Positions 5,123 through 39,213 of a DNA stretch of 64,000 bases are shown here, one piece after another. A model generated the notes under the pieces. It did no database searches, was not told the DNA's origin, and saw only the letters and a program-made list of their open reading frames with translations. The stretch is from Tuwongella immobilis (GTDB lineage: Bacteria > Planctomycetota > Planctomycetia > Gemmatales > Gemmataceae), in assembly GCF_901538355.1 (NCBI RefSeq), contig NZ_LR593887.1, forward strand, positions 1,836,920 through 1,900,919, given 5' to 3'. The position numbers were made by a program, and so were the translations under genes. Each line of letters starts with the position of its first letter. The stretch's first letter is position 1.

Positions 5123-6463
5123 TCACTTGGATTTCGCCTGTCGAACGCAGTACAGATATTCGACGCCGCGAAGGTACAGGGCACCGCCCGCGACGGCTGG
5201 AGATGCCCAGAAGACGTCGTTGATCTTCCCAGTCCCGACAACCTCAAACGCTGGCCCGGCTTTGATGATCGCTGCCGATCCGGCCTCGTCCAGCAGGAGC
5301 ACCTGGTCCCCGGTGGCGATCGGGCAAGCGATCAGCCGAGTCATCTTCGGCACGCGCTCGTTATATTGCTGCTTCCCGGTCTTCGAATCATAACAGGCTA
5401 GCGTTCCCTTGCCGGGGATATACAGGTATCCCTTCTGGGACAGCGGCGAACTCCAGCCGGCTCCCCCGCCACTAACGTTCCAAGCCACGAATTCGCTAGG
5501 CGTTTCGCTATTTTTCGAGATGACCCCACGGACTCCAGCCCGGATGCCGAATAGCGGGCCGCTTGAACTCTGGCCGCCGTTGGAGAAGTAGAGGAGGTCG
5601 CCATCAACGGTCGGGGACGATGAGAACGGCTGAAACCCGCTCATCCGCCAAAGTTCATCGCCCGTATCCAGGGCCAGCCCCGATACCCCGTCGGGGCCAC
5701 AAACCACCAACTCGGTTCGCTTGGAGTTCGCCCACACCAAGGGGGAACTCCAAGCGGTGGTCGATGCTTGATCCGCCCACTGGAACCGCCATGCCTCTTT
5801 GCCTGTCTGACAGTCGAGGGCGACGACGAATGCCGTTTCCTGGCTGAAGCTTGTGATGAACACCTTGCCACCGCCGAGAGTTGGTGATGACCCACTTCCC
5901 CAATTGGCCACGGTCGGGTACGCGCCAAGTTCCGCCTTCCACACCTCTTTGCCAGTGTGGTCGAACGCTGCCATCGTCCCCGTCGCCCCGAAATAGGCAT
6001 ACACTCGTTCGGCATCGGCGCATGGGGTTTCCGTGGCATAGCTGTTACATGCATGGACCGGGTATTTCGGCTTACCCTTGGTTGCCGACTTCGCCCAGAG
6101 TGTCTTGCCGGTGATGCGGTCTAGGGCAACCACCTGCCAATCGATCTCCACGTCTGGGAGCGTCTCCCGCCCAGTTTCGATGACCCCTTGGCCGAAGCTC
6201 TTTGGCTTCCGGAGGTTGTCTGAAACGGCAGCGGTGACGAACAGCTTGTCACCGACTACCACTGGCTGCGATAATCCGGAGCCGGGCAGTTTCACCTTCC
6301 AGGCGATGTTCTTCTCCACTGACCACTCGGTCGGCAGTTCTGTCCCCTTTGTCGTTCCAGATCCGCTCGGGCCGCGGAATTGGGGCCAGTCTTCGGCCTT
6401 CACCTGTTGAGCAGATAGACAGAGGCCAAGGCCCAGCGTGCAAGCGTGGAACAATCGAATCAT
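5123..6463 (-). CDS. PQQ-like beta-propeller repeat protein
   Basis: 446 residues. ATG 6463 is preceded by GGAG; a further ATG at 6499 is in frame but lacks the ribosome site. Signal peptide at residues 1-24, then EDWPQFRGPSGSG, the hallmark opening of planctomycete PQQ-repeat (outer-membrane-assembly BamB-like) proteins. Blades repeat the pattern D-x-x-TGK-x-x-W (for example DRITGKTLW, DHTGKEVW, DCQTGKEAW, DTGDELW, DSKTGKQQY), giving an eight-bladed propeller. Likely periplasmic; no quinone-dehydrogenase catalytic partner is visible, so enzymatic activity is not claimed. Confidence 0.9.
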   Translation of the reverse strand: MIRLFHACTLGLGLCLSAQQVKAEDWPQFRGPSGSGTTKGTELPTEWSVEKNIAWKVKLPGSGLSQPVVVGDKLFVTAAVSDNLRKPKSFGQGVIETGRETLPDVEIDWQVVALDRITGKTLWAKSATKGKPKYPVHACNSYATETPCADAERVYAYFGATGTMAAFDHTGKEVWKAELGAYPTVANWGSGSSPTLGGGKVFITSFSQETAFVVALDCQTGKEAWRFQWADQASTTAWSSPLVWANSKRTELVVCGPDGVSGLALDTGDELWRMSGFQPFSSSPTVDGDLLYFSNGGQSSSGPLFGIRAGVRGVISKNSETPSEFVAWNVSGGGAGWSSPLSQKGYLYIPGKGTLACYDSKTGKQQYNERVPKMTRLIACPIATGDQVLLLDEAGSAAIIKAGPAFEVVGTGKINDVFWASPAVAGGALYLRGVEYLYCVRQAKSK

Positions 6464-6790
6464 GAGGTCTCCAGCGATCAGGAAGGGATGCTGTTTCAAG
6501 TCGTTTCAGAAGCGGTTTTGACAAGCGACGCGTCACGATTCGCCAGTTCACTCGGGAGGTCCGAATGAGAATCGAGCGAGAAAGATCGGTTCACTCACAG
6601 TCATAGACGAGCGGGGCCAGGATATTCCACCGCATCACCGCGAACGTGCCATCATCTCGACGCGATTCTGCGGACAACCGATCATTCCGTGTTGCGCCAC
6701 CGGATTGTGGTGCTTCGCCCGTGGTCGAATTTCCGGGGGCCATTCTCCTCATCATGAGTCGCCCGGAGTCCAAGAGTGTTCAAGGCCGCT
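6464..6790. other. Intergenic stretch, nothing convincing
   Basis: A 60-codon minus-strand frame (6591-6773) exists but has no clear ribosome site and no recognised sequence. It may carry the promoter of the PQQ-repeat gene. Confidence 0.4.
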
Positions 6791-35121: not shown

Positions 35122-35425
35122 GTCGCGTCCTTGGGGCGATTCCGTGTGCCGTTGGTTGATTTCGCATCGTTCATCGAGGGCGGGACCATACCCGGCTGCA
35201 TTTTCCTGTCAATCCCGACGAGACGCTTAATCCCGATAATCCACAAACGCCGAAAAGAGAGAGAAGCCGACACTCCGGGCACGATCGCTGGAGAATGTCG
35301 CGTCACGAAATTTCCAGCCGATGCGTAGTTCCGGGTAGAATGTGCTTCAGTTGGCCTTGTCAATCGCGGATGGATGCGAGACGATCCAAGGGGTCGTGTT
35401 GGTACATTCGCAAGGAGATTCGCTC
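35122..35425. other. Divergent promoter region between mazG-like gene and recJ
   Basis: About 300 bases between divergently transcribed genes. No RNA gene or repeat recognised. Confidence 0.4.
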
Positions 35426-37183
35426 ATGCCGCATGTCGCCAAAGCCTGGCATTTGAAACCTCATGATGCCCTGGCGATTCGTGCGTTGAGTCAATCGATG
35501 CGGATTTCCCCCGTGATTGCGCAATTGCTGGTCAATCGCGGCGTCACGGAAGAGGCCGACGCCCGCCGATTCTTGGACGCGGGGATGAATCTGCTGCACT
35601 CGCCCAAGTTGATGCCCGGCATGGAAGCGGCCGTCGATCGCATTCTCGATGCCATCAAAGATCGTAAGAAAATCTGCGTCTATGGCGACTACGATGTGGA
35701 CGGCACCACCGGGACCGCCATTCTCGTGCAGTTGTTCCAGAAATTGCAGGTGCCCATCCAGTTTTATGTGCCCAACCGACTGGGGGAGGGGTACGGCCTG
35801 AATATGGACGCGCTGCGGAATCTGCATGCCGAAGGGGTGCAGGTCATCATCAGCGTCGATTGTGGCATTGCCGCCCTCGAAGAGACCAAGTTGGCCAGCG
35901 AACTTGGCATCGAAATGATTATCACCGACCACCACGAAATGCGGGACGAACTGCCCGGTGGGGGCGCGGTGCTGGTCCATCCGCGATTGCCCGGTTCGCT
36001 GTATCCCTGGGGCAGTCTGTCCGGCTCGGCGGTGGCGTTCAAACTCGCTTGGGCGCTATCGGTTCGCATCTCGAATCATGATCGCGTTCGCCCGGAATTG
36101 CGCGAACTGCTGATGGATAGCCTCTGCCTGGCCACGCTCGGCCTGGTGGCGGATGTCGTGCCGCTGCAAGACGAAAACCGCGTGTTGGTCAAACATGGCT
36201 TGAAGCGAATCAGCGAACAACCCACCGTCGGCATCCGCGCCTTGCTCGAATCATCCAAGTTGGGTGTGGAACAGCAGTTGCGTGCGGAAGATATCGCCTT
36301 TCGGATCGCGCCACGCATCAACGCCGCTGGTCGATTGGGCTGCGCTCGCAGTGTCGTGGAATTGCTGCTGACGCAATGCCCCGACCAAGCGCGCGAGTTG
36401 GCCGACTTCCTCGATCAACGCAACACGCAACGGCAACAGATTGAACGTCGCATGCTCGAACAGGCGCAGGAACTCGCCGAACGCGACGGCGAAGGCCGCC
36501 CCGCATTGGTGTTGTCGCACCCAGATTGGCACGCCGGAATCATCGGCATCGTCGCGGGCAAGCTCGTCGATCGCTACGGTCGCCCCGTGATTCTGATTGC
36601 TCAGCATGATGGCAAACCGTTTGGCACCGGCTCCGCACGCTCGATTCCGGGATTCGAGATGCACACCGCACTCGACGCATGCCGCGACGATCTGATTGCG
36701 CACGGGGGCCACGCCATGGCCGCCGGGCTGAAGATTGCCGCCGATCGCATCGACAGCTTCCGCGAGCGCTTCTGCGAATACGCCGCCCAGCATTTTCCGC
36801 AGGGGATTCCGCCGGTTCCCAAATTGTCGATCGATGCCGAGATGCCGCTGTCGAGTCTGACCATCGGCCTGCTCAACGACCTGGACCGACTCGAACCATA
36901 CGGCGCGGACAATCCCCGACCGCTGTTTCTGACCGGGAATCTGCAACTCGATGGCGAGCCGCGGATTCTCAAAGATGTGCACCTGAAATTCTTCGTTCGC
37001 AGTGGCAATTCCCGATTCGCCGCCATTGGATTCTACATGGCCGATCGACTCGACGAACTGCTCTCCGGCGGCGGGAAAGTCTGTCTGGTTTATCGCCCCA
37101 AGCGAAATGTCTGGCAGGGGCAAACCAACATCGAAATGGAACTGGTCGATTTCCAGCCCGGCCCCGATGCCGACTTAGCGTAA
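35426..37183 (+). CDS. recJ: Single-stranded-DNA-specific exonuclease RecJ
   Basis: 585 residues; ATG 35426 follows AAGGAG. DHH-family metal motifs GDYDVDGTTG (near residue 95) and TDHHEMRDELPGGGAVLVHP (near 175), with VDCGIAALEE between them. The C-terminal DHHA1 and OB regions contain GHAMAAGLKI and a typical ending. Full length for RecJ (about 570-600). Degrades 5' single strands in recombination and mismatch repair. Confidence 0.97.
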   Translation: MPHVAKAWHLKPHDALAIRALSQSMRISPVIAQLLVNRGVTEEADARRFLDAGMNLLHSPKLMPGMEAAVDRILDAIKDRKKICVYGDYDVDGTTGTAILVQLFQKLQVPIQFYVPNRLGEGYGLNMDALRNLHAEGVQVIISVDCGIAALEETKLASELGIEMIITDHHEMRDELPGGGAVLVHPRLPGSLYPWGSLSGSAVAFKLAWALSVRISNHDRVRPELRELLMDSLCLATLGLVADVVPLQDENRVLVKHGLKRISEQPTVGIRALLESSKLGVEQQLRAEDIAFRIAPRINAAGRLGCARSVVELLLTQCPDQARELADFLDQRNTQRQQIERRMLEQAQELAERDGEGRPALVLSHPDWHAGIIGIVAGKLVDRYGRPVILIAQHDGKPFGTGSARSIPGFEMHTALDACRDDLIAHGGHAMAAGLKIAADRIDSFRERFCEYAAQHFPQGIPPVPKLSIDAEMPLSSLTIGLLNDLDRLEPYGADNPRPLFLTGNLQLDGEPRILKDVHLKFFVRSGNSRFAAIGFYMADRLDELLSGGGKVCLVYRPKRNVWQGQTNIEMELVDFQPGPDADLA

Positions 37184-38204: not shown

Positions 38205-38285
38205 GCCGGAGAATTTGCCGGATTTTTTGCTTTCTTGGCGGATCGAGCCGGGGTATGGTAACGCGAGATTGGTTGGTTCGATTCC

Positions 38286-38449
38286 GAGACTATTCTCAGG
38301 TGTTCCGCCTGGGTTGAAGTTGCCTGCGATTGCGTTCTCCAAGCCGTTGTTCTTTTTGCTACTACGTCGCCGAGTGGCGGGTGTGCTGAGACAACGGCTG
38401 TTCTACCCGCCACTCGGCGACGTAGTAGCTCGGTGAACGTCTTGGATCC
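38286..38449 (+). repeat. Variable-stem hairpin unit 1 (candidate structured RNA or ssDNA element)
   Basis: Invariant 74-nt 5' part (38286-38359), arm 38360-38382 (23 nt), loop 38383-38404 (22 nt), arm 38405-38427, invariant 3' part GCTCGGTGAACG... (38428-38449). The arms pair 23 of 23 and the stem can be extended by the flanking GC. Loop bases 38391-38399 (ACAACGGCT) are the exact complement of 38342-38350 (AGCCGTTGT), just 5' of the stem. Outer arms CGTTCTCCAAGC (38333-38344) and GCTCGGTGAACG (38428-38439) pair with two mismatches. Strand is arbitrary. Not a known family to me. Confidence 0.85.
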
Positions 38450-38515
38450 TTCGTGATGGTCGTGAGTCGGAATCGAAATCGATGGGGTGTTGGAACGGGT
38501 CATTCGGAATGGATC

Positions 38516-38678
38516 GAGACTATTCTCAGGTGTTCCGCCTGGGTTGAAGTTGCCTGCGATTGCGTTCTCCAAGCCGTTGTTCTTTTTGCTCATCAAGGAG
38601 GAATTTCCCGGTGGGCTGAGACAACGGTTGTTCTACCGGGAAATTCCTCCCTGATGAGCTCGGTGAACGTCCTGGATC
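38516..38678 (+). repeat. Variable-stem hairpin unit 2
   Basis: 5' part 38516-38589 is identical to unit 1 over all 74 bases. Arms 38590-38612 and 38635-38657 pair in 22 of 23 positions (one A-C mismatch), although they are mostly unrelated to the arms of unit 1. Loop 38613-38634 shares GCTGAGACAACGG with unit 1. 3' part from 38658. ACAACGGTT (38621-38629) faces AGCCGTTGT (38572-38580) with one G-T wobble. Confidence 0.85.
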
Positions 38679-38774
38679 GAGTCTTGGAAGTCGATCATTC
38701 GGAATGCATGACCAAGTTGGGAAGACTGGGATCGATTCGATCCCGGTCGGTTGATTGCGATTCACTCTCCTTGC

Positions 38775-38938
38775 GAGACGATTCTCAGGTGTTCCGCCTG
38801 GGTTGAAGTTGCCTGCGATTGCGTTCTCCAAGCCGTTGTTCTTTTTGCCCACATGCCCGGCACCGGCGGGTAGGCTGAGCCAACGGATGTTTTGCCCGCC
38901 GGTGCCAGGCATGTGGGCTCGGTGAACGTCTTGGATCC
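38775..38938 (+). repeat. Variable-stem hairpin unit 3
   Basis: 5' part 38775-38848 differs from the other two at one base (GAGACG versus GAGACT). Arms 38849-38871 and 38894-38916 pair at 21 positions plus one G-T, with one C-A mismatch. Loop 38872-38893 keeps GCTGAG-CAACGG. The arm ends GGCGGGT as in unit 1 but the rest differs. 3' part GCTCGGTGAACG at 38917. CAACGG in the loop can pair with CCGTTG at about 38833-38838. Confidence 0.85.
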
Positions 38939-39213
38939 TGACTTGGAAGTCGCAAGGTGGTGCGTCGCGATTGGCTTGTCGGAGCAATCCCTAAGCGCAT
39001 CTCCATTTCAATGCGCGTCCGTTTCGTTCCGATTCGGAACATTCGTTCCATTTGGCGGAAGCAATCGCAGGCGTGGCGAGGCTTTTTGGCGGATTCCGAC
39101 TGGCTGGTTGGAAACCGCTGGGGCGTGGGGTATCATGCAGATAGGCATCCGCGTGTTCTCTCCACACCGAATGACATCCTTCGGGATCGTTCTCGCTTGC
39201 AAGGCACTGCACC

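What the first reader, a model, noticed from the sequence alone, without database searches (positions are those of the whole stretch)
38286..38938. Three tandem units with invariant flanks and largely unrelated, self-complementary 23-bp stems
The sequence shows a 74-nt 5' part identical in two units and one base different in the third, a 22-nt loop of shared core, and a shared 3' part, but arms that are mostly unrelated between units. Despite this, each pair of arms is complementary at 23, 22 and 21 (+1 G-T) of 23 positions. Gradual mutation cannot give flanks this similar with stems this different, so the stems look exchanged as whole blocks, or are made by a process that copies one arm as the complement of the other. 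I know no family with this build; it could be a structured ncRNA array with programmable duplexes, or an ssDNA-hairpin mobile element.
Basis: seen in the sequence. Interest (0 to 1): 0.9.

Follow-up and report, generated by a model that had tools for sequence, protein, structure and literature searches.

The report
Spare template RNAs of a retron
The three repeats are extra copies of the template RNA of a retron (a bacterial reverse-transcriptase system of a kind used in phage defence); one reverse transcriptase elsewhere in the genome appears to serve seven such templates, each with the same ends but its own perfectly paired hairpin stem, which would make a small repertoire of DNA hairpins rather than the single one known retrons make.

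Summary
The three units are copies of the msr-msd ncRNA of a type XIII retron. The genome has seven units. Two sit beside the SWIM_XIII and RT_XIII genes (unit-SWIM-unit-RT). Five are orphans, including the three in the window, where no RT or SWIM lies. The same RNA lies upstream of 43 of 46 type XIII RTs with enough context, across Planctomycetota, Verrucomicrobiota, Myxococcota and Competibacteraceae. It is conserved as an outer stem (a1/a2), an msr-like hairpin and a long msd-like stem. The msd stem is about 98% Watson-Crick with under 1% G-U in 56 units, so DNA-type pairing seems to be what is kept.

The claim that gradual mutation cannot explain the stems is too strong: Competibacteraceae show slow, paired stem changes beside unchanged flanks, and the seven own units look like old copies. 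Whole-stem replacement is nevertheless real: at orthologous sites in three Gemmata genomes flanks are mostly 93-97% identical while stems are wholly different in several comparisons and identical in two. No donor stem was found. What is new, as far as I could check, is a multi-copy, partly in-trans set of retron templates with exchangeable stems. Whether the orphans make msDNA is untested.

The parts
38277..38287 (+). unit 1, outer stem P1 5' arm (a1-like), TTCGATTCCGA
   Evidence: pairs with 38467-38477
38286..38357 (+). unit 1, conserved 5' part: GAGAC start, P2 hairpin CTCAGGTG-TTC-CGCCTGGG (msr-like), P3a arm
38358..38382 (+). unit 1, variable msd-type stem 5' arm
   Evidence: 100% complementary to 38405-38429
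38383..38404 (+). unit 1, conserved loop
38405..38429 (+). unit 1, variable stem 3' arm
38430..38463 (+). unit 1, conserved 3' part (GTGAACGTCTTGGATC, partner of P3a)
38467..38477 (+). unit 1, outer stem P1 3' arm (a2-like), TCGGAATCGAA
38516..38694 (+). unit 2, complete msr-msd-type ncRNA unit (stem arms 38588-38612 / 38635-38659)
   Evidence: 206.9 bits
38512..38517 (+). unit 2, inner part of outer stem P1 5' arm (partner 38691-38696)
38775..38953 (+). unit 3, complete msr-msd-type ncRNA unit (stem arms 38847-38871 / 38894-38918)
   Evidence: 209.2 bits
38769..38776 (+). unit 3, outer stem P1 5' arm (partner 38950-38957)
38205..39213 (+). intergenic stretch, between a 323-aa gene with no Pfam match and a TatD-type gene, that holds the three orphan units; no RT_XIII or SWIM_XIII match anywhere in the window (partner genes at G000:C1:4216600-4220195)

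Best explanation
Each unit is the ncRNA (msr-msd) of a type XIII retron. The outer stem P1 is the a1/a2 repeat, P2 is the msr hairpin, and P3 (the long variable stem) is the body of the msd that is copied into a DNA hairpin. Shown: the unit belongs to type XIII RT loci; the fold is conserved; the stem is kept at Watson-Crick pairing; one RT_XIII gene is present in a genome with seven units, five of them unlinked; and stems were replaced as blocks in Gemmata. Inferred: the single RT uses the orphan RNAs in trans, so the cell carries a small mixture of msDNAs sharing ends but differing in stem. Also inferred: stems are unrelated because only pairing is selected (slow paired drift between old copies), with conversion between units exchanging whole stems in multi-copy lineages. 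The likely role is phage defence, by analogy with other retrons, with HEAT-ARM and SWIM as partner proteins.
For: PADLOC: SWIM_XIII E 2.6e-177 and RT_XIII E 3.3e-158 beside two units in the own genome. HEAT-ARM_XIII, SWIM_XIII and RT_XIII in one operon with three units in a Gemmata genome. In the 95 family genomes, nearly all genomes with units also have RT_XIII. 43 of 46 independently fetched RT loci with at least 3 kb upstream carry the unit upstream, most within 0.7 kb. The RT has YADD and the retron motifs NAxxH and VTG, invariant in six diverse RTs. Covariation: 96% of cells paired, score 0.786 against 0.179 shuffled and 0.09-0.13 slid; all 25 P3 pairs change on both sides. Stem G-U is 0.7-0.9% against 18.6% in P2. 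Stem replacement at orthologous sites. Paired drift. Own copies.
Against: No msDNA or RNA data could be examined. Use of the orphans in trans is not shown. The msr/msd boundary and the branching G are placed by analogy only. The own operon has no HEAT-ARM gene within the 19 kb looked at. PADLOC names rest on its own models.
Confidence: 0.88

Rival explanations
1. Ordinary structural drift alone: old paralogous RNAs with flanks frozen by selection, and a stem in which any base pair will do, changing by compensatory substitutions. No exchange of blocks is needed.
For: Sequence outside the seven own units is at random identity, so the copies are old. In Competibacteraceae the ncRNA flanks show 0 of 199 differences in several pairs at about 15% neighbourhood divergence, while stems differ by 0-6 coupled pairs and at most one one-sided change, outside one divergent member. 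This suffices for the window's three units.
Against: Three Gemmata orthologue sets at 89-96% coding identity have flanks mostly 93-97% identical and several stems unrelated, while other units of the same genomes keep identical stems. The P1 stem of the same units does not change.
Confidence: 0.35
2. Cassette exchange: homologous recombination between units (in one genome or from other strains) through the conserved flanks swaps stem, loop and sometimes P3a.
For: Unit B of one Gemmata genome (G065) has units A/C-type P3a helix with B-type outer parts, a conversion tract around the stem. Stem sharing is not consistent with one species order: A is shared by G062 and G065, B by G062 and G063. Whole-stem replacement is seen in multi-copy genomes.
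Against: No donor unit with the same stem was found in any of 12 genomes or among 53 distinct stems. It does not say where new stems come from.
Confidence: 0.45
3. Arm-copying by the RT: errors or captured sequence in one arm are copied into the other by fold-back synthesis, and the msDNA recombines back into its locus.
For: Near-absence of G-T pairs and one-sided changes. Arms are themselves weakly self-complementary (p about 3e-6 against half-swapped controls).
Against: Stems are stable over long times when not replaced (identical in G062/G065 and G062/G063; slow drift). Strong selection for a DNA hairpin explains the Watson-Crick bias equally well. No direct evidence of any return to the genome.
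Confidence: 0.1
4. Guide-like small RNAs: the stem is processed by RNase III into about 23-nt duplexes that target phage or host sequences.
For: Perfect 23-25 bp duplexes; weak miRNA-precursor-like Rfam scores, all far below gathering cut-offs.
Against: Arms match nothing in the own genome, 12 relatives, phages or plasmids above chance. Four viral-contig scans gave one chance hit in a glycine-rich coding stretch. The unit is tied to a reverse transcriptase.
Confidence: 0.03
5. A mobile ssDNA-hairpin element or MITE dispersed the units.
For: Orphan copies at scattered sites.
Against: No fixed termini: the outer stem differs at every site. No transposase is linked. In relatives the unit is mostly found at the retron locus.
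Confidence: 0.04

Closest known systems
Type XIII retron (PADLOC RT_XIII + SWIM_XIII + HEAT-ARM_XIII)
   Same: Same protein set, and the unit lies in the operon, usually just upstream of the RT.
   Different: Here 2-7 ncRNA units per genome, five of seven away from the RT in the own genome, with exchangeable stems. Whether the type XIII ncRNA was described in Mestre et al. 2020 could not be checked (paper not held).
Classical retron ncRNA (a1/a2, msr, msd), e.g. Retron-Eco1 (PMC8989520)
   Same: Outer inverted repeat, short conserved hairpin, long hairpin in the copied part; layout as.
   Different: Classical retrons, to my knowledge, have one ncRNA per RT in cis. Here there are tandem and unlinked copies.
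Diversity-generating retroelements
   Same: RT-linked RNA template with a variable part (PMC8867640).
   Different: No target gene, no adenine-biased change seen; stems are stable unless replaced.
CRISPR arrays
   Same: Repeated constant part with variable inserts.
   Different: Inserts are self-complementary hairpins; no match to phages or plasmids.

Membership tests
Type XIII retron | RT of the XIII clade linked to the RNA | tested here: met
   RT_XIII E 3.3e-158 beside two units in the own genome; 43 of 46 RT loci have the unit upstream
Type XIII retron | SWIM partner protein | tested here: met
   SWIM_XIII E 2.6e-177; 40 of 46 independent RT loci
Type XIII retron | HEAT-ARM partner protein | tested here: inconclusive
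   Present in Gemmata and 36 of 46 loci; not within 19 kb around the own RT
Retron ncRNA | Outer inverted repeats a1/a2 | tested here: met
   P1 found by duplex folding at all 12 units tested
Retron ncRNA | Conserved msr hairpin and long msd stem, covarying | tested here: met
Retron RT | YADD, NAxxH and VTG motifs | tested here: met
   Invariant in alignment A6; motif meaning from established knowledge
Retron | 2'-5' branched msDNA actually made from the unit | not testable with these tools
   needs RT-DNA sequencing
Retron (cis arrangement) | ncRNA next to its RT | tested here: not met
   Met for 2 of 7 own units; the window's three are unlinked, so for them the claim is 'copies of a retron ncRNA', not a complete retron
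Rfam family | Match at gathering score | tested here: not met
   Only sub-threshold miRNA look-alikes
CRISPR-like memory | Inserts match mobile elements | tested here: not met

The most novel reading that the evidence does not exclude
Multi-copy type XIII retrons keep a repertoire of msDNA hairpins: one RT copies several templates, some far away, and stems are swapped between templates as cassettes under diversifying pressure (for example phage enzymes that cut, modify or mimic one msDNA), so that the sensor part of the defence is variable.
Probability: 0.3. Interest if true: 0.85.

Novelty: new variant of a known kind. Interest (0 to 1): 0.66.

Why it matters
Known retrons are treated as one RT, one RNA, one msDNA. 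A genome with one type XIII RT and seven intact templates, five of them unlinked, suggests that these RTs work in trans on a set of RNAs, and that counting RT-adjacent RNAs misses templates. Constant ends with freely replaceable, strictly Watson-Crick stems point to which parts the proteins read and to DNA as the selected form. The covariance alignment gives a family that Rfam lacks and a direct test of whether msDNA stems diversify under phage pressure. It also offers natural evidence of which msd stems an RT tolerates, useful for retron-based DNA production.

Tried and rejected
Arms as targeting sequences: no match in the own genome, phages, plasmids (47; about the first two thirds of the arms were sent), or 12 relatives beyond their own units. 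The near matches of 20-26 nt are in GC-rich stretches without matching hairpins, and one viral 20-mer hit lies in a glycine-rich coding stretch. Palindromic restriction-type sites enriched in the arms: perfect 6-mers are not enriched against shuffles (26 against 26.1), although arms do have excess dyad symmetry about their middle. Hypermutation of stems in Competibacteraceae: it first looked striking (0 of 199 flank differences, 3 coupled stem changes), but neighbouring DNA differs by about 15%, so stems there are not faster than neutral; rejected. miRNA-like Rfam scores: far below gathering. Dispersed REP-like donor elements: contexts of arm look-alikes are not matching hairpins. Naming the organism by exact pattern in genome contigs failed. 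Literature: Mestre et al. 2020 not held; no paper in the library ties a retron to type XIII ncRNA, Gemmata or several ncRNAs.

Full report
1. Observation. The repeat finder gives a 76-nt 5' block at 38285, 38515 and 38774 (100/100/97%), three inverted repeats of 24-25 nt that are 100, 96 and 96% complementary with 22-24 nt loops, and a shared 3' block. The intergenic stretch 38205-39213 lies between a 323-aa gene without a Pfam match and a TatD-type gene. The window's genome (6,690,754 bases, one contig) holds seven units: the three here, two at 4216383 and 4218336, one at 6189499 and one at 794714 on the minus strand. All seven stems differ and all pair. Each unit is also enclosed by a second, variable outer stem P1.

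2. What the units are. The two units near 4.217 Mb flank a 568-aa gene that matches PADLOC SWIM_XIII (E 2.6e-177), and the second is followed by a 532-aa gene matching RT_XIII (E 3.3e-158). In a Gemmata genome (G063) the order is HEAT-ARM_XIII, two units, SWIM_XIII, a 161-aa ORF, one unit, RT_XIII. A covariance model built from the seven own units found about 66 matches in 28 of 95 Gemmataceae genomes; a second model from 55 units found about the same set, 29 of 95. RT_XIII occurs in 44 of the 95. An independent fetch by RT sequence gave 79 loci from Planctomycetota, Verrucomicrobiota, Myxococcota, Riflebacteria and Competibacteraceae. The model found the unit upstream of the RT in 43 of the 46 loci with at least 3 kb upstream held, with SWIM in 40 and HEAT-ARM in 36. 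In other planctomycete families the order is HEAT-ARM, SWIM, unit, RT. The RTs carry YADD, NAxxH and VTG, the last two being retron hallmarks from established knowledge. The layout of outer repeat, short hairpin and long hairpin is that of a retron ncRNA (a1/a2, msr, msd; PMC8989520). I conclude that the units are type XIII retron ncRNAs and that the window holds three orphan copies. Rfam 15 has no family for them.

3. The stem. Over 56 units the long stem has 1390 pairs: 1364 Watson-Crick, 10 G-T and 16 mismatches. In the structure count all 25 stem pairs change on both sides and one-sided changes are very rare; the covariation score is 0.786 against 0.179 in shuffles and at most 0.134 when slid. 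G-U is 0.9% in the stem but 18.6% in the msr hairpin. An RNA helix would tolerate G-U, so the selected form is probably the DNA hairpin, as expected for msDNA; that step is inference. In 55 units from a second, wider set of loci the same holds: 1319 of 1354 Watson-Crick, 4 G-U (a few of these loci repeat genomes of the first set).

4. How unrelated stems arise. Two regimes are visible. (a) Slow, paired drift: ten Competibacteraceae units have stems differing by 0-6 coupled pairs with at most one one-sided change, and one more divergent member. Several pairs have 0 of 199 differences in the RNA flanks, while kilobases around them differ by about 15%. The flanks are thus under very strong purifying selection, and 'identical flanks, different stems' need not mean recent exchange. 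The seven own units fit this: DNA just outside them is at random identity, so they are old copies. Flanks including P1 are about 93-97% identical in most comparisons (91% and 87% for two unit-B pairs), yet stems are identical in two comparisons and fully different in several. P1, also a free-sequence stem, stays unchanged, which speaks strongly against drift as the cause there. In unit B of G065 the replaced tract includes the adjacent P3a helix, now of the type seen in units A and C of that genome, as expected from conversion between units. No donor stem was found. G022 carries a second, distantly related type XIII retron whose two tandem units again share flanks (99%) and differ in stem.

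5. An extra property. The arms are themselves weakly self-complementary about their middle: mean z -1.39 against shuffles, Wilcoxon p about 3e-6 against chimeras of half-arms, random 28-mers of the window z -0.08. The effect is modest, perfect 6-mer palindromes are not enriched, and I have no tested explanation.

6. Mechanism offered. One RT_XIII copies several msr-msd RNAs, two in its operon and five in trans, into msDNAs with constant ends and unit-specific hairpins. HEAT-ARM and SWIM would be the partner proteins, with phage defence by analogy with other retrons. RNA identity, fold, pairing constraint and copy number are shown. Production of msDNA, trans use and defence are inferred. In Eco1, msr and msd supplied in trans still give RT-DNA (PMC8989520), so trans use is chemically plausible.

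7. Novelty. It is a known kind (type XIII retron) in a new variant: multi-copy, partly unlinked template RNAs with exchangeable stems. I could not read the 2020 classification paper, so the basic type XIII ncRNA may already be described. The multi-copy orphan arrangement was not found in the library searched.

Noticed in passing
window 35342-37183 (+): A RecJ-type ssDNA exonuclease gene (DHH, DHHA1, RecJ_OB) and, on the other side, a TatD-type gene flank the orphan array; probably coincidence, but both are nuclease families.
   Followed up: partly
L066 (G022:C16:11708-13598, minus strand): A second, divergent type XIII retron in the same genome: two tandem ncRNA units 249 nt apart with 99% identical 5' flank and different stems.
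   Followed up: partly
L048 8033-8518 (+): A 161-aa ORF between SWIM and unit C in the Gemmata operon, no Pfam or PADLOC match.
   Followed up: partly
L050 5722-5898 and L053 6907-7037: Intermediate stems with an uncompensated base or indel in one arm (A opposite C; bulge), showing that imperfect states do exist.
   Followed up: partly
all 52 distinct arms: Each arm is weakly self-complementary with the axis near its middle, beyond half-swapped controls; no explanation.
   Followed up: partly
L128 (G127:C72:4000-17000) 6384-6600: A more distant retron-type RT with an upstream RNA sharing the P2 hairpin but with a different arrangement of long stems.
   Followed up: no
L074, L077, L082, L085: Other RT_XIII-like genes lack this unit but have long CACCGCAGAGG-type inverted repeats nearby, likely unrelated dispersed repeats.
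   Followed up: no
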